Assembly: GCF_000202835.1 (NCBI RefSeq) | Contig: NC_015186.1 | Location: 1,364,001-1,428,000 of the forward strand | Direction: 5' to 3' | Origin: Acidiphilium multivorum AIU301 | Lineage (GTDB): Bacteria; Pseudomonadota; Alphaproteobacteria; Acetobacterales; Acetobacteraceae | Length of the DNA: 64,000 nucleotides | Made by a program: the position numbers and the translations under genes | Part shown: positions 12,620 to 25,123 of the stretch, piece by piece | Position numbering within the stretch: position 1 is the stretch's first letter | Layout of the letters: every line of letters starts with the position of its first letter | Notes under the pieces: generated by a model | What the model saw: the letters and a program-made list of their open reading frames with translations, nothing else | Databases searched by the model: none | What the model was told of the DNA's origin: nothing

Positions 12620-13386
12620 CCGCCGAGCAGCGCCACGGCATCGCCGAGCAGGGCGGGATTGCCGAGCGCCAGCGCGGTGCCGTCGCTCTCCAGCGTGAGC
12701 TCAGCGCCCCGCCAGTCGGTCATCGCCCCGCCCGCCGCCTCGATCACCGGCGCCAGCGCCGACCAGTCCCAGGGCTTGAGATCGGCCTCGGCGACGACGT
12801 CGATCTGCCCGAGCGCCAGCAACCCGTAGCCATAGGCATCACCGCCATAGGTCACCCTGCGGCAGGCGCCGGCAAGGCGGCGAAAGCCGCCGAACTGCGC
12901 CTCGGTGAACATCTCGGGCGAGGTGCAGGAAAGCTCCGCCTCCGCCAGCGACGCCACCGCCCGCGTTCCCGGCGCGCCGCCATGCGGGCCGGAAAAGCGC
13001 AGCACGCCCTCATGGGCCAGCCACCGCTCGCCGAGCACCGGCTGGTCAATCAGGCCGAGCACCGGCCGTCCATGCTCCAGCAGCGCGATCAGCGTGGCGA
13101 AGACCGGCCGGCCGGTGATGAAGGCGCGCGTGCCATCGATCGGGTCGATCACCCAGGTGAAGCGCCCGCCTGCCTTGCCGCCCATCTCCTCGCCGATCAC
13201 GGCATGGTCCGGGCAGCGTTCGGCCAGAACGCGGCGGATCGCGGCTTCGGCGCCGCGATCCGCCAGCGTCACCGGACTGGCATCCGCCTTGGTATCGACG
13301 TCGATCCGCGCGCGGAAATGCGCGCGGATCACCGCCCCCGAGGCATCCGCCGCGGCCGAGGCCACGGCGACCGGATCAAAGCTCAT
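12616..13386 (-). CDS. hisN: Inositol monophosphatase-family phosphatase, likely histidinol-phosphatase
   Basis: 256-residue member of the inositol monophosphatase superfamily. The metal-binding motifs are intact: VIGEEMGG (E-E), WVIDPIDGTRAFITGRP (DPIDGT) and the C-terminal KPWDWSALAPVIEAAGG (WD). The GTRAFITGRPVFATLIAL context matches HisN, the histidinol-phosphate phosphatase common in alphaproteobacteria, but a general sugar or inositol phosphatase cannot be excluded because no other his gene is in the window. The start overlaps the cytochrome stop by ATGA and the stop overlaps the GNAT start by ATGA. Confidence 0.82.
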   Translation of the reverse strand: MSFDPVAVASAAADASGAVIRAHFRARIDVDTKADASPVTLADRGAEAAIRRVLAERCPDHAVIGEEMGGKAGGRFTWVIDPIDGTRAFITGRPVFATLIALLEHGRPVLGLIDQPVLGERWLAHEGVLRFSGPHGGAPGTRAVASLAEAELSCTSPEMFTEAQFGGFRRLAGACRRVTYGGDAYGYGLLALGQIDVVAEADLKPWDWSALAPVIEAAGGAMTDWRGAELTLESDGTALALGNPALLGDAVALLGG

Positions 13387-14807
13387 TTGAAGGTTTCGGG
13401 ATGGTCGGACTGCTGGTTGAGATAGGCGATCATGTTGGCGCGGGCGACGTTGTTCTTGATGCCCGGATAGGCCATGTGCGTGCCCGGCACCGCCTTCATC
13501 GGATCGTAGAGCCACTCGTTCAGCTCATGCGCGGTCCAGTCGCCGGTCGCATGCTTCTTCGCGGCCGAGGAGAAGCTGTAGCCCGCCGCCGCGAACATTT
13601 TCGCGCCGACCACGCCGTAGAGATTGGGGCCGACGCCGTTGGCACCGCCCTTGTTGATCGAATGGCAGGCCGAGCACTGCTGCTGGAACATCGCCTGGCC
13701 CTTGGCCGGCGCGGCGCTGGCCAGCAGCGTCTTGACCGAAGGCGCGCTGGAATCGAGCCCGGTCGGCGCCGCACCGGCGGCCGTCGCCGTCGTCGCGGCG
13801 GGGCCCGCAGCGGCGGCGAGGTTCACCGGATGGTCGGACTGCTTGTTGAGATAGGCGATCACATCCGCCCGGGTCTGGTTGTTCTTGATGCCCGGATAGG
13901 CCATGTGCGTGCCCGGCACCGCCTTCGTCGGCGCGTAGAGCCATTCGTCGAGCTCGTGCGGCGTCCACTTGCCGTCGGCATGCTTCTTCGCCGCGCCGGA
14001 GAAGGTGTAGCCGGCCTTGGCGAACATCGGCGCGCCGACGACACCGTAAAGGTTCGGCCCGACGCCGTTCGCCCCGCCCTTGGTGACCGTGTGGCAGGCC
14101 GAGCATTGCTGCTGGAAGAAGGCCTCGCCCTTGCTGGCATCGGCGCTGGCATAAAGCGTGGTGATCACCGGCGCGCCCGAATCGAGGCCCGCTGGCGCCG
14201 CCCCCTTCGAGGCGACGGCCGAACCGCCGGCGCCCGGCTTGGGCAGCGGGATCGGGTTGTCCGAGAGGGTGCGCAGATAGGCGATCGCGTCGGCGCGGAC
14301 ATTGTCGTTCTTGATGCCCGTGTAGCCCATGCGGGTGCCCGGCGCGAATTTCTGCGGGTCATCCAGCCACTCGTTCATCTTCTGGTAGGTCCACACGCCG
14401 GAGGCGGCCTTCGTCACCGCGCCGGAGAAGGTATAGCCGGCCTTCTTGAACATCGGCTCGCCCATGACGCCGTAGAGATTCGGCCCCACGCCGGCCGCGC
14501 CGCCCTTGTTCAGCGTGTGGCAGGCCGCGCATTGCTGCTGCACGAAGGCCTCGCCCTTCTTCACGTCGGCCTTGACGATCAGCCCGTCGATGGAGGGAAT
14601 GCCGCTGGTCTTGGCCGCGACGGGCGCCTCGGCGGTCTTGATGACCGGCTTCTTGACCTCCTTCTCGCCGGTCATCACGCCAGCGATATGGATCGCGATC
14701 CAGACCAGGAGCCCGGCCGAGAGAATGCCACCGGCAATCTTGTTCAGCAGCAGCGGGTCGCGGCCCTTGCCGCCGTGTCCGGAAGACGGGTGGTTCTGAT
14801 CACTCAT
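13383..14807 (-). CDS. Membrane-anchored cytochrome with three tandem class I c domains
   Basis: 474 residues. A basic N-terminus and one signal-anchor helix (GGILSAGLLVWIAIHIAGVM) precede three homologous ~140-residue cytochrome c domains exposed to the periplasm. Haem-binding motifs are CAACH (C93-H97), CSACH (C235-H239) and CSACH (C378-H382). Each domain has GVGPNLYGV, a GYTFSGA or GYSFSSA segment and a candidate sixth-ligand methionine in GTRMGY or GTHMAYPG. Each domain resembles CycM/cytochrome c552-type electron carriers to oxidases. Linkers are Ala/Pro-rich. Single-domain membrane-bound forms are known; a triplicated chain is unusual. The second and third domains share long identical DNA. 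A GGAGGGACC ribosome site precedes the ATG. Confidence 0.9.
   Translation of the reverse strand: MSDQNHPSSGHGGKGRDPLLLNKIAGGILSAGLLVWIAIHIAGVMTGEKEVKKPVIKTAEAPVAAKTSGIPSIDGLIVKADVKKGEAFVQQQCAACHTLNKGGAAGVGPNLYGVMGEPMFKKAGYTFSGAVTKAASGVWTYQKMNEWLDDPQKFAPGTRMGYTGIKNDNVRADAIAYLRTLSDNPIPLPKPGAGGSAVASKGAAPAGLDSGAPVITTLYASADASKGEAFFQQQCSACHTVTKGGANGVGPNLYGVVGAPMFAKAGYTFSGAAKKHADGKWTPHELDEWLYAPTKAVPGTHMAYPGIKNNQTRADVIAYLNKQSDHPVNLAAAAGPAATTATAAGAAPTGLDSSAPSVKTLLASAAPAKGQAMFQQQCSACHSINKGGANGVGPNLYGVVGAKMFAAAGYSFSSAAKKHATGDWTAHELNEWLYDPMKAVPGTHMAYPGIKNNVARANMIAYLNQQSDHPETFK
13449..13926. repeat. 49-bp exact direct repeat inside the tri-domain cytochrome gene
   Basis: Positions 13449-13497 and 13878-13926 are identical over 49 bases, offset by 429 bases (143 codons). 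They encode the segment spanning PGTHMAYPGIKNN of the third and second cytochrome domains. Identity at synonymous positions points to recent domain duplication or gene conversion. The first domain is more divergent at the same place. Confidence 0.9.
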
Positions 14808-16553: not shown

Positions 16554-16686
16554 GAAAATCGAGCCATATTTCGTTTGTCATGACGGAACAGTTCTGCTAA
16601 CGCGCCTTTAAATTCGGGCGTAAAAACCACGCCTCCTTGGCGGCCGCCGGCTCATGATGACCGGGCCGGGCCGTTGGAGATGCGCG

Positions 16687-18471
16687 ATGGCGGACCACCC
16701 GACGACAGAGTTCTTCCGGCCGGACACCACCCCGTCCGCCGACTGGGGCGCGGCCGGCAACTGGAGCGGCGGCACCGTTCCCTCCGCCGGCGTCACCGCC
16801 GAGATCGTCGGGCTCTTCGCCTCGATCGACCCGACCATGACGATCGAGACCGCCATCCGCCTGGAGGGTGGCGCGGACGCGGCCGGGCTGGTCGGCAACG
16901 GCGGCGCGGTTGCCCTGGGGCGAAACTCCTGGCTCGACGTCGCCGCCGCCGCCGACCTGTTCGCCTATGATTCCGCCGTCGGCATGGGGACCATCTCGCT
17001 CGCCTGCGACGCGACGCTCAATGTCGTGGTCGATCTCGGCGCCCTGACCGGGTTGCCCGGCGCGGCTCCGCCCAGCTTCGGCAATGACGGCACGATCGAT
17101 ATCGGCGCCGGCGCGCTGGTCGAGATCGGCGGCACGGCATTCGACAATCGGGGCACCGTCGACATTGCCGCGGGCACGCTCGCCGTCGAGGGCGGCGCCG
17201 TGCAAGGCGGCGGACTGATCGCCCTGAGCGGCGGCGCCTCCGCCCTGCTGGCCGACGGCGTCGCCGGCCAGATCTTCCTGTTCGGCCCCGGCGGCGGGAC
17301 GCTGACGCTCGACGATCCCTATCTCGGCCGTGGCGTCACGATCGCCGACCTCGCGCCCGGCGACACGATCGTCCTGCCGACGCTGCGCAACGGCGAGGTC
17401 CGCGAGACCGGCGATACCGTGAGCCTCATCGACGCCACCGGCCATGTCGACGGGCAGTTCGTGCTCCGGGACGCGGCCGGCTTCCATGTCGAGACCGGCT
17501 CCGGCGGAACGACGATCAGCGGCGGCGCCTACGATCCCCCCTGTTTCGCGCGCGGCACCCTTATCCTGACCCGCCAGGGGCTTCGCCCGGTCGAAACCCT
17601 CGCCGCCGGCGACGAGGTCGTCACGGCCGATGGAAAGCTCGTGCCCGTCATCTGGACCGGTTCGCGCACGCTCGATCTCGCGATGCACCCGGCGCCCGAG
17701 AAGGTGAAACCGGTCTGCTTCGCGCCCGGATCGATGGCCGACGGCGTCCCCGCCCGCCGCCTGCGGCTTTCGCCCGATCACGCGGTCTGGTTCGACAACC
17801 TCCTGATTCCCGCCAAGTTCCTCGTCAACGGCGCGACCATCACGCAGGACGAGGCCTGCCTCGCCATCACCTACTACCATGTCGAACTGGCCCGGCACGA
17901 CGTGATCCTGGCCGAGGGCGCGCCATGCGAGAGCTACCTCGACACCGGCAACCGCGCCGGCTTCACCACGGCGCAGGCCTGGCCGGTCCGCGATCTCCGC
18001 TGGGACCGGGATGCCTGCGCGCCGCTCTGCACCGGCGGGCCGGCGCTCCTCGCGGTGCGGCAGCAGCTGCATCATCGCGCGCTGTCCGAGGGCTTCCGGG
18101 TCGGCACCGTCCGGGACGCCGCGCTGTGGACAGGAGGCGTGATCCTGCCCGTCGAAACCGCGGACTGGCTGTCCCTCCCTTCCGGGCATGACGGCAGGGC
18201 CATTCTCCGGTCATCGTGTTTCGTGCCGGCCTGCGTCGATCCCGCGTCCGATGACCGGCGCACGCTCGGCGTCGCCCTCGCCGCGCTGCAGACCGACCTC
18301 GGCGAGATTGAGCTCGACAACTGTGCTGTCCAGGGCTTTCACAATCGTGCGTCAGGCGACGCGGCAAGATGGACCAATGGCCGTGGCGAAATCATGCTGC
18401 CACGCCAGGCTCGGCGCATCCGTGTCTGCCTCGAAGCCTTCCCGCGCCTCTGGCAGCGGGCCGGCGGATAG
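16687..18471 (+). CDS. Hint (hedgehog/intein) domain protein with repetitive N-terminal region
   Basis: 594 residues. The first ~280 are glycine-rich with beta-strand-like repeats (NDGTIDIGAGALVEIGG, NRGTVDIAAGTLAVEGG), suggesting a beta-helix or extracellular passenger. A Hint_2-type domain begins at Cys286 in CFARGTLILT, followed by TADGKLVPVIWTGSR and the conserved histidine in LSPDHAVWF. The C-terminal part after ~residue 440 is of unknown fold. Such proteins are abundant in Acetobacteraceae and Rhodobacteraceae; autoproteolysis is possible but unproven. No signal peptide is obvious. The start is set by GGAG seven bases before MADHPTTEF. It stands alone between two AT-rich gaps. Confidence 0.82.
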   Translation: MADHPTTEFFRPDTTPSADWGAAGNWSGGTVPSAGVTAEIVGLFASIDPTMTIETAIRLEGGADAAGLVGNGGAVALGRNSWLDVAAAADLFAYDSAVGMGTISLACDATLNVVVDLGALTGLPGAAPPSFGNDGTIDIGAGALVEIGGTAFDNRGTVDIAAGTLAVEGGAVQGGGLIALSGGASALLADGVAGQIFLFGPGGGTLTLDDPYLGRGVTIADLAPGDTIVLPTLRNGEVRETGDTVSLIDATGHVDGQFVLRDAAGFHVETGSGGTTISGGAYDPPCFARGTLILTRQGLRPVETLAAGDEVVTADGKLVPVIWTGSRTLDLAMHPAPEKVKPVCFAPGSMADGVPARRLRLSPDHAVWFDNLLIPAKFLVNGATITQDEACLAITYYHVELARHDVILAEGAPCESYLDTGNRAGFTTAQAWPVRDLRWDRDACAPLCTGGPALLAVRQQLHHRALSEGFRVGTVRDAALWTGGVILPVETADWLSLPSGHDGRAILRSSCFVPACVDPASDDRRTLGVALAALQTDLGEIELDNCAVQGFHNRASGDAARWTNGRGEIMLPRQARRIRVCLEAFPRLWQRAGG

Positions 18472-19007: not shown

Positions 19008-19607
19008 TCAGGCCGGCGGCAGCAGCGGTCCGAATCCCCGCCGGTGATGCGGGGTAATGCCGAGACCCAGGATGGCGTCTCGATGCGTCTTCGTTGCATA
19101 CCCTGAATTCCGCGCCCACCCATATCCCGGATAGCGCCGGTCGAGCCGGCTCATCGCCCGGTCGCGCACCAGTTTCGCCGCGATCGAGGCCGCCGCGATC
19201 GAGAGCGAAAGCCCGTCGCCGCCCACCACCGGCGTGCAAGGCATCGGCAGATCCGGCGCCACCTGCCCGTCGACCAGCACATGATCCGGCCGAACCGCCA
19301 GGCGCGCCACCGCCCGCCGCATCGCCAGCAGGCTCGCCTGCAGGATATTGAGCCGCGCGATCTCCGCGACGGAGGCCGCCGCCGCCGAGATCGCGGCGCC
19401 AGACTCGATCAGCGCGGCCAGCGCCGCCTCCCGCCGCGCCGGCGAAAGACGTTTCGAATCATCGATCAGTGCCGCGATCTCCGGCGGCAGGTCGGCGGGC
19501 AGGATCGCCGCCGCCGCCACGACCGGCCCGGCGAGCGGCCCGCGCCCCACCTCGTCCACGCCGGCCACCACGCCGCCCAGCGCAAGCTCGCGGCTGAAAT
19601 CAGGCAT
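19008..19607 (-). CDS. rnhB: Ribonuclease HII
   Basis: 199-residue enzyme that cleaves RNA in RNA-DNA hybrids and removes single ribonucleotides. The N-terminal [15 protein letters not shown] carries the catalytic Asp-Glu, VLVDGQ carries the next aspartate, and [17 protein letters not shown] is the conserved helix ending at the last metal ligand region. The start used (MPDFSREL) lies eight bases inside the end of the Ehr-like small-subunit gene, so it may be translationally coupled to that operon. Functional linkage with the complex is not implied. Confidence 0.92.
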
Positions 19608-20094
19608 GCGGCTCGACCCGCGCCCGGCGAGGTTCGCGCGCATTCGCCTCGACCAGCGCAACCAGCCCCGCGAGGATCTGCCGTGGCGCGGGCGGGCAGC
19701 CGGCAATCAGCAGATCCACCGGAATCACCGCCTGCACACCGCCGAGAACCGCCGGCACGCCCTTGAACACGCCGCCATCGAGCGCGCAGTCGCCGGCAGC
19801 GACGACGAAGCGCGGCGGCGCCATCCCGGCGAGGCTCTTGCGCACCGCCTCGGCCAGGTTGCGCGTCGCCACCCCGGTGACGAGCAGGATATCGGCGGCG
19901 CGAAGATCCTCCACCATCGCGATTCCCTGCGCCGCCATGCCGCCGCGCAGCCGGCGGCAGGCCGCGATCTCGATCTCGCAGCCGCCGCAACTGCCGGCAT
20001 CGACATGCCGCACCGCAAGGCTGCGGCCGAGCAGCGCCTGGCCGGAGGCCGCCAGCCGGGCGCTCAGCACCCGGACGGGATCATCCTCATCCAT
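19600..20094 (-). CDS. NuoB/HycG-like Fe-S small subunit of a hydrogenase-related (Ehr-like) complex
   Basis: 164-residue homologue of the small subunit of group 4 hydrogenases and of NuoB. All four ligands of the proximal 4Fe-4S cluster are visible: C36 and C39 in [11 protein letters not shown]103 in [10 protein letters not shown] and C133 in [12 protein letters not shown], the spacing of HycG/HyfI proteins. It should sit on the cytoplasmic side, passing electrons to or from the large subunit, so an electron-transfer role survives even though the large subunit lacks NiFe ligands. The start MDEDDPVRV overlaps the large-subunit stop by 8 bases. No ferredoxin-like HycF/HyfH gene accompanies it. 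Confidence 0.85.
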
Positions 20095-21370
20095 CGATCG
20101 CCCCCGGCGGCAGCGCGTAACATTCGGCCAGCATGGCGAACGCCTCCATTTCCAGCCCGACGGCCGCATCCTCCAGCGCGCGGAACCGCCCCGCGGCGGG
20201 ATCGATCAGCGCGGCGGCGGCAATCTGCCCGTCATGCAGCTTCACCCAGTGATGCACCATGCCCCGGGCGGAAGCGGCGGAGCCGAGTCCGCGGGCGCTC
20301 ACCGGCGGCAGCGGCGCGACGATCTCCCCCGCCGGCGCGGCGTCGATCGCGGGCGCGATGCCGGGCGCGAGGGCGATGATGGCCCGCGCCCGCTCCCGCG
20401 CCAGCGCCGAAGCCGGCCCGAGGGCGTGGCGCACCCCGAACCCGCCGATCCGCCGCGCCGCCGCCGCCGCATCGTTCAGGGCCGAGGCCAGCGCCGGCAG
20501 CGCCTCCATCCGGGCATCGACATCGATCCCGCCGGGAATGACGACATCCATCATCAGCCGGTGGCCGAACAGCACCGCGACGGCGGCGGCGATATCGTCC
20601 CGCGCCCGGCCCAGCCGCGCGGCAAGGCCGGCATGACCGGCGATGTCCAGCGTCCCCGCCAGCGCGAGCAGATGCGCCGTCACCTGCTCGATCTCCAGCA
20701 TCGCGGCGCGCAACGCCGCGGCGCGGGGCGGGGCGGCGCCGTCGCCCGCTGCCTCGGCCGCGCGGGCGAAGGCGAGCGCGTGCGCGACCACGGCATCGCC
20801 GGCCAGGCGCGCCGCGAAACGCGCGGCCGCGCGCGGCGACTTGCCGTGCAGCAGCGCGGCGACATCGCGATGGGCATAGCCGTGCCGATGCTCGAGCCGG
20901 ACGATCCGTCCCGCCTCGATGGTGAAGCGGCGATGAACCGGCCGGGCGATCAGCCCCGAAACCGGCCCCTGACCGACCTGAAACGCCCCCTCGCCCGCCG
21001 GTTCGGCGAAGCGCGGCCAGGCGGCGTCGCCCTCGCCGTGGCGGACGGCCGGTCGCGTGTCGGCCGCGCCCGTCGCGATCGCGCCATCGCGCTCGGCGGC
21101 CAGCCGCTCGAACCAGGAAGCGGCGGGAATGGACGGGGACAGGGCGGGAAACGCCTTGTCCGCCAGCGTCACCGCGACCAGCAGCGGCGCGGCGCGGAAG
21201 AACAGCGCATGGGCGCGGCCATCGGCCACGAACAGGCCGGCGAAATCCGCCGGATCCACCAGCGTCGCGAGGTGCTGCCAGTCCGCCGGCGTCAGCAGAT
21301 GCAGCGCCGCCCCGCCGCAGGGCTCGACCGTGGATGCGGCCAGCAGGCCGGCGATCTCGGCGTCCCTCAT
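20087..21370 (-). CDS. HycE/HyfG-like large subunit lacking the NiFe cysteines
   Basis: 427 residues. An N-terminal NuoC-like part has FPALSPSIPAASWFER (residues ~74-89). It is followed by a NuoD/HycE-like part with RLEHRHGYAHRD (158-169). Where NiFe hydrogenases have RxCGxCxxxH, this protein reads RLAGDAVVAH (188-197): both cysteines are replaced by Ala. At the C-terminus no DPCxxC motif is found; the sequence ends [16 protein letters not shown]. It therefore cannot bind a canonical NiFe centre. This matches the energy-converting hydrogenase-related (Ehr) class, whose reaction is unknown, rather than a hydrogenase. It overlaps the upstream membrane subunit by ATGA. Confidence 0.85.
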   Translation of the reverse strand: MRDAEIAGLLAASTVEPCGGAALHLLTPADWQHLATLVDPADFAGLFVADGRAHALFFRAAPLLVAVTLADKAFPALSPSIPAASWFERLAAERDGAIATGAADTRPAVRHGEGDAAWPRFAEPAGEGAFQVGQGPVSGLIARPVHRRFTIEAGRIVRLEHRHGYAHRDVAALLHGKSPRAAARFAARLAGDAVVAHALAFARAAEAAGDGAAPPRAAALRAAMLEIEQVTAHLLALAGTLDIAGHAGLAARLGRARDDIAAAVAVLFGHRLMMDVVIPGGIDVDARMEALPALASALNDAAAAARRIGGFGVRHALGPASALARERARAIIALAPGIAPAIDAAPAGEIVAPLPPVSARGLGSAASARGMVHHWVKLHDGQIAAAALIDPAAGRFRALEDAAVGLEMEAFAMLAECYALPPGAIDG

Positions 21371-22680
21371 TGCAGCCCCGCCACCGGCGCCGCCCCGAGC
21401 ACCACCATCAGGACGAGCAGGCCGAGCACGGCCGCCCCGCGCATCGGCACGCTCTCCGCGCCGGGTGGCGCGGGTGCCGTCAGCGCGCGCGCGCCGCCCG
21501 CGCCGATCAGCGCGACGAGGGACGCGGCCAGCAGCGGCGACAGGGAAGCGGCCGCGCCAACGATGCGGAAATCGCCGGCGAACACGCCGAAAGGCGGCAG
21601 GCCGGCCAGCGCCGCGATCGCCCAGATCCGCAACCCGCCCGCGCCGGATAGCGCGACGGCGACCCGCCCGAGCGCCACACCCACGAGAATCGTGATCGCC
21701 CCCTTCACATCGCCCAGCCCGAACCCGACCATCGCCGCGCCGCCCTGCAGCAGCGCGAGCGCCTCCTCCGCCGGCCAGCGCCGCCAGAGCAGGATCGCAC
21801 CTCCGATCACGCCGAGCAGCCCCGCCGCGAGGCCGAGCCGATCCGGCGCCACCCCACCCAGCAGGGCCACCCCCAGCGCCGCCAGCGCGAGGACGATCCC
21901 GGTCCGCGGCGCGCCGCGCGGCAGGACCAGCCGCAGCGCCCCCAGGACCGCCGCCGCGATCAGGAGCTTCGCGGCATAGACCGCGATACCCTCCGGCCAG
22001 CCCAGCGGTGCCGTGGCATGCGCGAGGCCGGGCGGCGCGACGAGGGCGACCAGCAGCGCAAGGGCAGCGGCCCGGCGCAGCATGGCTTCGACAACGAAGA
22101 CCGCGCGGTCCGGCCCCGCATAATCGCCCGGCACCGGCGCGGAACCGGGCCAGGTCAGCAACACCCCGAGCACCGCGAGAACGGCTTCCGGCGTCGTCCC
22201 GCGCGGCGCGGCGGCGAGCGCGGCAAAGGCGAGCAGCCAGGCGAGATCGGCGCCGAGGCCGGATGCGGCCAGCCGGGCGGCGGCGAGGCCGGGCATGGCC
22301 GCCCCGGCGTCGATCCCCGCCATCACCCGCATCGCCCGCCCGAGCGCGAGCAGGCCGATGAACAGCGCCGGGCCGGCGCGCCCGGCGGTCAGTTGCCCGG
22401 CCGCGAAACCGGGGATGACGACGATCACCATGACCGTCGCCGCCAAGGCGGCCAGCGGCCAGATGCCGTGCAGCGGCGAGGCAAAGGCAGGGCGGATGCG
22501 GCGCTTTCGCGCAAGGCGGCGGAGATCGCGCAAGGGCTGCGCGAAGGTGACACCTGGCGCCCCGGCCAGCTGCCCCGCCAGCCGGGCGCGGGCGCATTCG
22601 AGCAGCACCGCGAACCCCGCCAGCAGCGCCATGTTCATCCCGGTCGCGATGGTCCGGCTTGCGAGCAGCGCCGGGCTCAT
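21367..22680 (-). CDS. Fused membrane subunit: HycD/NuoH-like domain plus HyfF-like C-terminal part
   Basis: 437 residues with about a dozen hydrophobic segments. Residues ~1-280 resemble HycD/HyfC (NuoH-like): TFAQPLRDLRRLARKRRI (46-62) is the QP-x-x-D-x-x-K/RL loop, and DYAGPDRAVFVVEAML (186-201) matches the EYSG region. Residues ~285-437 resemble the C-terminal third of HyfF/NuoN-type antiporter subunits (ALLQGGAAMVGFGLGD, then ALAGLPPFGVFAGDF at 357-371). No separate HyfE or HyfF gene is present, so this looks like a fusion with loss of most of HyfF. The acidic ELTMIHEA-type loop I expect in HycD is not seen before DYAG. Start and stop overlap neighbours by ATGA. Confidence 0.72.
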   Translation of the reverse strand: MSPALLASRTIATGMNMALLAGFAVLLECARARLAGQLAGAPGVTFAQPLRDLRRLARKRRIRPAFASPLHGIWPLAALAATVMVIVVIPGFAAGQLTAGRAGPALFIGLLALGRAMRVMAGIDAGAAMPGLAAARLAASGLGADLAWLLAFAALAAAPRGTTPEAVLAVLGVLLTWPGSAPVPGDYAGPDRAVFVVEAMLRRAAALALLVALVAPPGLAHATAPLGWPEGIAVYAAKLLIAAAVLGALRLVLPRGAPRTGIVLALAALGVALLGGVAPDRLGLAAGLLGVIGGAILLWRRWPAEEALALLQGGAAMVGFGLGDVKGAITILVGVALGRVAVALSGAGGLRIWAIAALAGLPPFGVFAGDFRIVGAAASLSPLLAASLVALIGAGGARALTAPAPPGAESVPMRGAAVLGLLVLMVVLGAAPVAGLQ

Positions 22681-23936
22681 GGCCGCCGCCAGCCCCGGCG
22701 CGAGATCCGGACCCGCCGGACGAACCACGATGCGGCCCCCCGCAGCGGCGCGGCAAATCCCGTCGCGTTCATCTGCGTGACCGGATCGCCGAACGGCAAC
22801 CATGCGGGCGGCCGGGCGAACCCGTCCTCGAAGGCCGGCGCCTCGATCGGCCCGGCGCGCAGGCTCCAGCGCCACAGCCCCAGCAGCACGCCGAGCGGGA
22901 TCAGGAGCAGGAACGGCGCGGTGACGAGGGCAAGCGCGGCGGCGGCGGCGGCCGGCAGACCGAGCGCGACGAGATCACGGCGCGGCAGATCCTCGGCGGC
23001 GGCGGCGCGCAGGCTGCGCGGCCGGCCGAGGCAGACCAGCGCGAAGAGCCCCACCGAACCGAACCCGGCCAGCGCGAAACCGCCGGCAAGGGCGATGGCG
23101 GCCAGCGCGCCCGGCCAGCCGGCCCGCAGCGCTGCCGCGAACACGCCCTGAAACGCGACGAAGCCCGGTCCCGGCGGCAGCAGGCTCGCCCAGAACGCCG
23201 CACCGCCGAAACACAGCGCGAAGCCGGGCATACCGCGCGCCAGCCCGCCCAGCCAGTCCGGCGCGCGCGAACCCGTCACGTCCTCGATCCGCGACGCCGC
23301 AAGCGCCAGCGCCGGCGCCGCCAGCGCGCCGGTCTCCAGCGCAAGCCGCATCGCCCCGGCATCGCCGAGCCCGGCCGCCATCAGCGCCAGCCCGGCAAGG
23401 CCAAGCGCCGCGCCCTGGGCGAAGCGGAGCAGATCCCCGCCCAGCGCGGCGAGGAGATAGCCGGCCGGGAACAGCGCCGCTCCGGCCACCAGCAGGATGC
23501 CGGGCTGCCCGAGCGTCTCCGCCACCGCGAGCAGCGTCGCTGGCAGCACCGCCAGCGCAGCGGGTGCCGCGGCGCGGTGGCGAGCGGCCAGGAACCCCAC
23601 GATCAATGCCGCAAAAACAAGCGTGTAGAGATTGTTGGCGAGAATTGCGATGAGGCCGGCGAGCATCAGCACCGCGGAAACGCCCAGACCCGGCGCCGCC
23701 AGCAGGCCGGCGGCGCCCCCTGCCAGCACGGCGGCGATGAGGCCCGCCCGGCCCGGATCGACGGCCAGCGCCAGCCCGCCCGCCGGACCGAGTTCCGGCA
23801 CCGAGACCGCCAGCCGGCCGGTCAGCACGACCGCGCCCCCCAGCGCCAGCACCGCCCCGGCCAGCGCCAGGCCGGCAGCAGGAACGGGCGCGATCGACGA
23901 CAGTCGCGCGAGCGGACGGGGCGCGGGGCGTGCCAT
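22677..23936 (-). CDS. Shortened HyfB/HycC-like (NuoL-type) membrane subunit
   Basis: 419 residues, nearly all hydrophobic and Ala/Leu/Gly-rich, compared with roughly 600 to 670 in HycC/HyfB. Recognisable parts are ILANNLYTLVF, the region around MPGFALCFGGAAFWASLLPPGPGFVAFQG (~245-273, shown in part) that matches the P-G-F loop, and the C-terminal cytoplasmic tail with AFEDGF and TQMNATGFAAPLR, equivalent to the HyfB W-x-C-G...YTAxGFSxPL tail. The TM5 glutamate and the TM7/TM8 lysine segment of active antiporter subunits are not recognisable. It begins the Ehr-like operon; an MsrQ-like gene ends 53 bases upstream on the same strand. Confidence 0.7.
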   Translation of the reverse strand: MARPAPRPLARLSSIAPVPAAGLALAGAVLALGGAVVLTGRLAVSVPELGPAGGLALAVDPGRAGLIAAVLAGGAAGLLAAPGLGVSAVLMLAGLIAILANNLYTLVFAALIVGFLAARHRAAAPAALAVLPATLLAVAETLGQPGILLVAGAALFPAGYLLAALGGDLLRFAQGAALGLAGLALMAAGLGDAGAMRLALETGALAAPALALAASRIEDVTGSRAPDWLGGLARGMPGFALCFGGAAFWASLLPPGPGFVAFQGVFAAALRAGWPGALAAIALAGGFALAGFGSVGLFALVCLGRPRSLRAAAAEDLPRRDLVALGLPAAAAAALALVTAPFLLLIPLGVLLGLWRWSLRAGPIEAPAFEDGFARPPAWLPFGDPVTQMNATGFAAPLRGAASWFVRRVRISRRGWRRP

Positions 23937-23989: not shown

Positions 23990-24874
23990 TCAGCCCGGAG
24001 CCGCGTGGCGCTGCAACCGCCGCGCGGCCACCAGCACCGCCAGCAGCGCGAGATCGGCCGCGACGAACGCCGCCGGGCTGATCCGCGCGGTCGAGAGATT
24101 GGCATCGAGCACGCGCCACGGATCGATCCCGGAATTGAGCGCATACCATCCCGCCTCGCCGCCGGCGGTGATCGCCACGGCACCGAGGGCGAGGACGAGA
24201 ATGCCGGCCAGCGAGCGCCGGAACCCCGGCGGCGCCAGGCGCCAGAGCATCAGCCAGACGAACAGGCCGAACGGCACCATCGCCGCCGAGACGTCGATCT
24301 TCTGGGTGAGGAAGAAATGCCAGATCGAGAGCGCGGCGATCGGATAGACCAGCCGGTGCAGCGCCTTCCACCGCCGCCCCAGCCGCGCCATCGCCGCATC
24401 GGTCGAGGTCGCGGCCAGCGCCACAAGCCCGATCGTCGCGATGGTACCGAGGATGAGGTAAAACACCGTAAACATCTGATTCAAAACGAATCCGATGGCA
24501 TATCCCTCATCCGCCGCATACAGGATCACATGCGCGAAGGTGTAGAATGCCGCCGCGAGGCCCAGCATTCGCCGCAACATCGCCAGCCGCATCCAGTCGA
24601 ACACCGCCCGCGCCGGTGTGATGGCGAGGCCGAGCAGCAGGAAGCGGATCGCCCAGAACCCGGTCTGCAGCATCAGCTCATGCGTCGGCCGTCCGCCGAG
24701 ATGTCCGGTTTGCCGCTCCCACAGCATATAGGCCGCCGGCGCGGTGCAGAGCGCGAGGGCAATCGTCTTCAGCCAGGAAAACCGCCCGGCCGGCGTGCGC
24801 CAGGGCGCGCCGAAGACGCGGGCCTGGCGTTTCGGGCGAACGCGGACTTCAGCTTGCGGGGCGGCATTCGGCAT
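23990..24874 (-). CDS. msrQ: MsrQ/YedZ-like haem b membrane protein (ferric reductase-like domain)
   Basis: 294-residue inner-membrane protein of the ferric-reductase-like transmembrane family. Histidines expected to bind haem b are in FYTFAHVILYAADEG, ALHRLVYPIAAL and SIWHFFL, as in MsrQ. MsrQ normally passes quinol-derived electrons to the periplasmic methionine sulfoxide reductase MsrP, but no msrP gene is adjacent: upstream lies the divergent ileS and downstream the Ehr-like complex. An extra C-terminal helix (AAFVAADLALLAVLVAARRLQ) makes it longer than the E. coli protein. The start MPNAAPQAEV was chosen over an upstream ATG that would extend it by ~32 residues. Confidence 0.8.
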   Translation of the reverse strand: MPNAAPQAEVRVRPKRQARVFGAPWRTPAGRFSWLKTIALALCTAPAAYMLWERQTGHLGGRPTHELMLQTGFWAIRFLLLGLAITPARAVFDWMRLAMLRRMLGLAAAFYTFAHVILYAADEGYAIGFVLNQMFTVFYLILGTIATIGLVALAATSTDAAMARLGRRWKALHRLVYPIAALSIWHFFLTQKIDVSAAMVPFGLFVWLMLWRLAPPGFRRSLAGILVLALGAVAITAGGEAGWYALNSGIDPWRVLDANLSTARISPAAFVAADLALLAVLVAARRLQRHAAPG

Positions 24875-25123
24875 GGCGGCTCGGATTCCGGCGTGGGAGC
24901 AGAAATATGCCCTGAATTCGCCTCGCCACCCCCATCCGGATGCGGATGAGAGCAAAATTCCGTTCAACATTCCGCGCTTGACCGTTCGGGGTGGCGGCTC
25001 GCATAACCTCTCGCCATGACATCCGCACGGCGCGCCGCCTGCCTGGTCCCGCGAATTCGCCGCCCGGTCCTGATCTAGGGCCGGGATCGCACGCCTGTCC
25101 TTTCCTCCGCCGGAGCCTTTTCG

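What the first reader, a model, noticed from the sequence alone, without database searches (positions are those of the whole stretch)
19600..23936. Compact hydrogenase-related membrane complex without a NiFe site
Four overlapping genes encode relatives of HyfB, HycD/HyfF, HycE and HycG. The small subunit keeps Cys36, 39, 103 and 133, so one Fe-S cluster can form. The large subunit has RLAGDAVVAH where NiFe hydrogenases have RxCGxCxxxH, and no DPCxxC at its end. There are no maturation genes, no HycF/HyfH ferredoxin-like subunit and no formate dehydrogenase nearby. This fits the energy-converting hydrogenase-related (Ehr) class, whose reaction is unknown. The four-gene form here is smaller than the Ehr or Hyf sets I know of.
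Basis: partly seen in the sequence, partly recalled or inferred. Interest (0 to 1): 0.82.

Follow-up and report, generated by a model that had tools for sequence, protein, structure and literature searches.

The report
Pump-less hydrogenase-related membrane complex
An Acidiphilium bacterium carries a shrunken relative of respiratory complex I that seems to have lost the parts that move protons but kept its iron-sulfur site, and many related bacteria show the same loss, so it could help test what such complexes do without pumping.

Summary
In detail: four overlapping minus-strand genes (19600-23936) encode a HyfB-like protein (B), a HyfC/NuoH-like protein fused to the tail of HyfF (CF), a HyfG-like large subunit without NiFe cysteines (G) and a HyfI-like small subunit with four cluster cysteines (I). 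The host is an Acidiphilium. The operon is intact in 6 of 6 loci read in full and under purifying selection (window versus L076, dN/dS 0.17-0.40). It descends from a six-gene Ehr-type complex; the genome has two complete Ehr sets elsewhere. 80 homologues keep nearly all of 21 key charged residues in B, C and F; 40, this one included, keep almost none in B (mean 0.33 of 7) and few in C (2.1 of 8), and 38 of these 40 lost the proton-donating loop histidine of G. The cluster cysteines stay: all four in 32 of 36 small subunits found. Best reading: a non-pumping membrane redox module derived from Ehr, a new variant of a known kind. Its reaction is unshown, and a purely structural role is a serious rival.

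The parts
22677..23936 (-). cmpB: HyfB/HycC-like membrane subunit, 419 aa; middle helices deleted, conserved TM5 Glu, TM7/TM8 Lys, TM11 His/Lys and TM12 Glu absent; C-terminal GDPxTQ loop kept
21367..22680 (-). cmpCF: HyfC/HycD (NuoH)-like protein fused to the last helices of HyfF, 437 aa; E-channel residues largely lost
21370..21789 (-). approximate stretch of CF that aligns with the HyfF tail (AGLPPFG...FAGDF); its start is not sharp
20087..21370 (-). cmpG: HyfG/HycE-like large subunit, 427 aa, no NiFe cysteines, proton-donating loop His, Arg395 and Glu437 equivalents of HycE absent
20780..20809 (-). RLAGDAVVAH in place of the RxCGxCxxxH nickel motif
19600..20094 (-). cmpI: HyfI/HycG-like small subunit, 164 aa, cluster cysteines 36, 39, 103, 133
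23990..24880 (-). neighbour, not part of the complex: MsrQ-like protein (Ferric_reduct domain), 53 bases before cmpB, next to the operon in 6 of 7 Acidiphilium-type loci; its start is not settled
19008..19607 (-). neighbour, not part of the complex: ribonuclease HII gene, overlaps the end of cmpI

Best explanation
A reduced Ehr-type complex turned into a non-pumping membrane redox module. Shown from sequence: it descends from a six-subunit BCEFGI complex; E and most of F are lost, the F tail is fused to C, the middle of B is deleted; the charged residues thought to carry protons through B, C and F are almost all gone; three proton-path residues of G (HycE His188, Arg395, Glu437 equivalents) are gone; the four cluster cysteines of I and two arginines of G that are also Arg in NuoD are kept; all four genes are under purifying selection. 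Inferred: G and I hold one [4Fe-4S] cluster at the cytoplasmic membrane face, docked on CF and the rest of B as in formate hydrogenlyase, and pass single electrons between an unknown soluble partner and a membrane acceptor such as quinone, without ion translocation and without complex-I-type proton-coupled chemistry.
For: Pump residues: of 149 different G rows 123 were typed; 80 'on', 40 'off', 3 between. The state was set on B (or F), so C and G are the independent witnesses: C keeps 7.96 of 8 in 'on' (72 measured) and 2.08 of 8 in 'off' (40); the loop His of G is kept in 79 of 80 'on' and 2 of 40 'off'. Direct alignments of 6 Acidiphilium loci. Cluster kept: four Cys in 32 of 36 'off' small subunits found and in 6 of 6 Acidiphilium loci; the two Arg of G in 43 of 43 'off' rows. 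Selection: dN/dS B 0.32 (0.22-0.41), CF 0.40 (0.30-0.53), G 0.26 (0.20-0.34), I 0.17 (0.09-0.30). Fold of B and CF like HycC and HycD.
Against: No reaction, partner or electron path is shown. Four 'off' small subunits have lost cysteines (two keep three, two keep one) and four 'off' loci have none found, one of them cut by the contig end, so the cluster is not indispensable everywhere. The His aligned with NuoD's HRG is Cys in L076. The catalytic pocket is altered too, so redox work may have stopped. B and CF evolve fast (CF about 41% identical within the genus, against 78-81% for HyfF of the e1 set).
Confidence: 0.45

Rival explanations
1. A deranged complex kept for a structural role: it does no redox work but stabilises another membrane complex, as has been proposed for the ligand-less bc1 complex of the same bacteria.
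For: Acidiphilium and Acidocella keep a bc1 complex without cofactor ligands, proposed to stabilise complex I (PMC10715153, abstract and passages). Pocket and pump residues are lost here. L060 and L195 (genus g8) keep B, C, F-like and G genes with one of four cluster Cys left in I.
Against: All four cluster Cys are kept in 6 of 6 Acidiphilium loci and 32 of 36 'off' small subunits; I is the most constrained subunit.
Confidence: 0.28
2. The four subunits work together with HyfE and HyfF (or others) of the e1 set as alternative subunits of a full complex.
For: e1 is complete in the same genome. 16 of 200 sampled genomes have an e1-like HyfF (at least 66% identical); in all 13 of these whose other copy was typed, that copy is 'off'.
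Against: CF carries its own HyfF tail. Genomes without e1 show both states; for example G112 (L180) is 'off' and has no e1-like HyfF. Relatedness is not controlled.
Confidence: 0.1
3. Slow decay of a redundant operon with no present function.
For: Fast change of B and CF, loss of many conserved residues, a second and third Ehr in the genome.
Against: Open frames in 6 of 6 loci that share only about 40-55% identity in B, CF and G, and dN/dS with upper limits below 0.54 in all four genes.
Confidence: 0.1
4. A miniature but still energy-converting Ehr that pumps ions by a different route.
For: Common ancestry and fold. Formate hydrogenlyase has only two membrane subunits and lacks the TM7 lysine (PMC9474812, passages). 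An acid is kept in the F tail (FAGDF, 6 of 6).
Against: Nearly all the residues are gone and helices that carried several are deleted. Changing HycD Glu138 or Glu199/201/203 cut H2 production by 98-99% in E. coli (PMC9474812, figure legend).
Confidence: 0.07

Closest known systems
Ehr, energy-converting hydrogenase-related complexes (PMC6349859, passages; Marreiros et al. 2013 recalled and seen only as a reference entry)
   Same: Large and small subunits related to group 4 hydrogenases without Ni and Fe ligands; NuoH-like and antiporter-like partners; same ancestry
   Different: Four genes; no HyfE; HyfF only as a tail; ion-path residues lost. Ehr are suspected to couple redox work to charge translocation
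Hyq 'endo-hydrogenase' of Azorhizobium caulinodans, hyqRBCEFGI (PMC2650096, passages; PMC3357923, first of five parts)
   Same: Subunit kinds and gene order B-C-E-F-G-I; small subunit with a CxxC plus two further Cys; closest to the canonical homologues and to e1
   Different: Six structural genes and a reported H2 activity; here four genes. Whether HyqG has NiFe cysteines was not tested
Formate hydrogenlyase-1 of E. coli (7z0s, 7z0t; PMC9474812, passages)
   Same: Best solved relatives of B (HycC), CF (HycD) and G (HycE); I matches HycG second to MbhJ; small membrane arm
   Different: NiFe site, ferredoxin-like subunits and formate dehydrogenase absent here; E-channel and loop His lost here
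Deranged bc1 complex of acidophilic Acetobacteraceae (PMC10715153, abstract and passages)
   Same: A respiratory complex of the same bacteria kept after loss of conserved functional residues
   Different: There cofactor ligands are lost; here the cluster ligands are kept and the pump parts are lost

Membership tests
Ehr complex | Large and small subunits related to group 4 hydrogenases, without Ni/Fe-binding cysteines | tested here: met
Ehr complex | NuoH-like and antiporter-like membrane subunits | tested here: inconclusive
   homologues present by fold, but B is internally deleted, E absent, F only a tail
Ehr complex | Ion-translocation residues as expected of an energy-converting complex | tested here: not met
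   B 0 of 7, C 3 of 8 at most by profile alignment in the window; same in relatives
Ehr complex | Redox reaction coupled to charge translocation | not testable with these tools
   needs biochemistry
Group 4 [NiFe] hydrogenase | RxCGxC and DPCxxC motifs | tested here: not met
Group 4 [NiFe] hydrogenase | Linked maturation genes | tested here: not met
   HypD found once, about 970 kb away, near a separate full-length NiFe large subunit
Respiratory complex I | NADH-oxidising subunits in the operon | tested here: not met
   no such gene among the four; two nuo clusters lie elsewhere
Respiratory complex I | Two consecutive cluster cysteines in the NuoB-like subunit (criterion from PMC9474812, passages) | tested here: not met
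   CxxC at 36-39, as in group 4 small subunits

The most novel reading that the evidence does not exclude
Across Acetobacteraceae an Ehr complex has lost its whole ion-pumping apparatus at least twice while its iron-sulfur head stayed under selection: a natural, stable uncoupling of a complex I relative, of which the Acidiphilium four-gene form is an extreme case. The redox head then has a cellular job of its own.
Probability: 0.45. Interest if true: 0.8.

Novelty: new variant of a known kind. Interest (0 to 1): 0.62.

Why it matters
What Ehr complexes react with, and whether the redox head of the complex I superfamily has a use without pumping, are open questions. Lineages in which the pump wiring is erased and the cluster kept separate the two roles by evolution. 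Canonical six-gene forms (Acidocella) and the four-gene form (Acidiphilium) occur in related genera, so deletion and complementation could tell which function is selected.

Tried and rejected
Rejected: NiFe cysteines hidden by a frameshift (frames open, same state in relatives). Rejected: a one-genome oddity or misassembly (7 of 7 loci of six other assemblies and this one). Considered: a partnership with the MsrQ-like neighbour; it flanks the operon in 6 of 7 loci but the genes next to L065 and L066 differ, and the genome has five Oxidored_molyb matches that may include its usual partner; not pursued. Considered: that gaining e1 allowed the reduction; 13 of 13 typed genomes fit, relatedness not controlled. 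The independent-pairs test of B/F loss against C loss had 2 pairs, both agreeing, and cannot reach significance. An alignment-free count of charged residues in hydrophobic stretches moves the same way only modestly (medians per 100: B 6.1 to 5.1, C 7.7 to 6.2, F 5.6 to 4.5; Mann-Whitney p 1e-4 to 6e-7, relatedness not controlled). First mixed alignment A2 put HyfF pieces on the NuoH part and was dropped. First gene calls took shadow frames and were redone; L041 B was called too short (363 aa), and was read in full frame.
Full report
What is there. Read from 23936 to 19600 on the minus strand, four genes overlap end to end: B (22677-23936, 419 aa), CF (21367-22680, 437 aa), G (20087-21370, 427 aa) and I (19600-20094, 164 aa). 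An MsrQ-like gene (Ferric_reduct domain) ends 53 bases upstream and a ribonuclease HII gene overlaps the end of I. Pfam sees G as NiFeSe_Hases and I as Oxidored_q6 and nothing in B and CF; NCBIfam matches B weakly to hydrogenase 4 subunit B. Predicted folds settle the membrane parts: B is closest to HycC of E. coli formate hydrogenlyase (7z0s_C, E 1.7e-10, TM 0.74 on the query) and CF to HycD (7z0t_D, E 3.8e-7, TM 0.78 on the target), with weak antiporter-like matches further down. The profile of G relatives is closest to HycE (7z0s_E), and I to MbhJ (6cfw_J), then HycG.

Where it lives. The window's record is unnamed. A scan of named genomes returned the same operon in L077 and L078 (titled Acidiphilium; G 57% and 38% identical) and L076 (titled only Proteobacteria, 79%); three members of the window genome's own genus carry it too (L040-L042). 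In the G tree L077 falls with L041 and L042, inside that genus (SH-aLRT 98), so I take the host to be Acidiphilium. B, CF, G, I and rnhB stand in this order in 7 of 7 loci long enough to show it; L096, cut by its contig end, has G, I and rnhB. Six loci were read in full and are open; L078 was not. Between the window and L076, dN/dS (NG86, 500 codon bootstraps) is 0.32 (0.22-0.41) for B, 0.40 (0.30-0.53) for CF, 0.26 (0.20-0.34) for G and 0.17 (0.09-0.30) for I. For comparison rnhB is 0.158/0.784 and ileS 0.013/0.156 in the same pair. So the genes are kept by selection, I most strongly, the membrane subunits loosely.

The rest of the genome. Two complete Ehr-like sets lie elsewhere: e1 (B, C, E, F, G, I in L036) and e2 (C, E, F, G, a ferredoxin-small subunit fusion, B in L037); both large subunits also lack NiFe cysteines. 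There are two nuo clusters and, near 410-420 kb, HypD and a full-length NiFe large subunit.

Ancestry. Acidocella, the Roseomonas group, Azospirillum and Magnetospirillum loci have the ordinary order B-C-E-F-G-I. In trees of G the Acidiphilium proteins fall among divergent Acetobacteraceae copies, nearest to one unnamed genus (g15, SH-aLRT 94, short of the 95 mark) whose four loci have B, C and G but no E or F found. The trees are quick ones with long branches; exact places are unsure.

Loss of the pump wiring. I took conserved charged residues of e1 (7 in B, 8 in C, 6 in F) that correspond to ion-path residues of complex I and formate hydrogenlyase (choice from recall and PMC9474812 passages) and read them in every locus by profile alignment. 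Of 158 G rows 149 are different; 123 could be typed from B or F: 80 'on' (B at least 6 of 7), 40 'off' (at most 2), 3 between, one of these because its B is cut. 26 could not be typed; 20 of the untyped rows form one divergent clade in which B was not recognised. Means: B 6.97 of 7 in 'on' (68 measured) and 0.33 in 'off' (39); C 7.96 of 8 (72) and 2.08 (40); F 5.97 of 6 (80) and 0.83 (18; F not found at length in the other 22); the loop His of G 79 of 80 and 2 of 40. B and F define the state; C and G are independent of it. Before removal of duplicates B/F and C agree in 73 'on' and 43 'off' rows of 120, the other 4 involving a middle state. In Acidiphilium the alignments show it directly: TM5 Glu, TM7 and TM8 Lys, TM11 His and Lys and TM12 Glu of B are deleted or replaced; the C motif ETGRxPxDNPATHLELxMVHEAMxLEYSGR shrinks to DYAGPxRAxFxxEAM; the F tail keeps one acid, FAGDF. 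On versus off needs 3 changes on the G tree, 6 if the middle state counts; one of the 3 involves a long-branch pair (L160, L169), so I claim at least two losses: the main group and the g34/g36 group (L071, L183, L176). Partial states in L073/L083 and L084 look like stages of loss.

What is kept. All four cluster cysteines are present in 32 of 36 'off' small subunits found, three in L057 and L058, one in L060 and L195; none was found in 4 of 40 loci, one of them (L179) cut by the contig end. In G the Arg of the former nickel motif and the Arg of FGHR are kept in 43 of 43 'off' rows and are Arg in the genome's own NuoD; I recall them as lying near cluster N2 in complex I, no call shows it. HycE residues named as proton path in PMC9474812 map onto G through. 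In 6 Acidiphilium proteins the His188, Arg395 and Glu437 equivalents are all gone, Arg478 is kept in 5, His284 in 2, and the His aligned with NuoD's HRG in 5 (Cys in L076). In the 'off' group as a whole Arg395 is kept in 29 of 43, Glu437 in 26, Arg478 in 24 and His284 in 31, so the pocket of the Acidiphilium form is more altered than the group's. Canopy Asp529 is already Asn in canonical Ehr.

How it probably works. A membrane-docked G-I pair with one cluster, no metal active site, an altered pocket and no evident proton path is best read as a one-electron relay between an unknown cytoplasmic partner and the membrane, uncoupled from ion movement. The anatomy is shown; the relay, its partners and the absence of pumping are inferred. 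A structural role is the main rival: the same bacteria keep other respiratory complexes without ligands (PMC10715153, abstract and passages), and L060 and L195 keep the other subunits with one cysteine left.

Known or new. Ehr complexes without Ni/Fe ligands are known (PMC6349859, passages), and a six-gene Hyq complex with reported H2 activity is described in Azorhizobium (PMC2650096 passages; PMC3357923 first part). In the listings of my searches (titles and abstract starts) I saw no paper on an Ehr without ion-path residues or with four genes; PMC10715153 and PMC7677001 have no word beginning with hyf. The library lacks most subscription journals, so this does not prove novelty. I file it as a new variant of a known kind.

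Limits. Column reading in very diverged proteins depends on the alignment; the alignment-free check is only modest. One family was sampled, unevenly. Host and neighbour names are inferences from the calls cited.

Noticed in passing
L060 and L195 (unnamed genus g8, two genomes): The small subunit of their Ehr has lost three of four cluster cysteines while B, C, F-like and G genes remain: an Ehr without its cluster.
   Followed up: partly
L065, L066, L179, L180 (unnamed genus g15): Ehr loci with B, C and G but no E or F found; a small subunit was found only in L065 (L179 is cut by the contig end).
   Followed up: partly
L068 (genome G139): Only G and I of the Ehr set were found in the 18 kb read.
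   Followed up: no
L037:13003-13794: Two DUF190 genes directly after the second Ehr set e2.
   Followed up: no
L036:2688-2942: Small helix-turn-helix gene (HTH_3) just before e1; genes of 82-98 aa stand before the e1-like sets in L061, L064, L070 and L075 too.
   Followed up: partly
G000:C6 410330-420312: HypD and a full-length NiFe hydrogenase large subunit in the same genome, far from the window.
   Followed up: no
window 13383-14807 (-): Protein with three cytochrome c domains in a row.
   Followed up: no
window 16654-18471 (+): 605 aa protein with a Hint domain.
   Followed up: no
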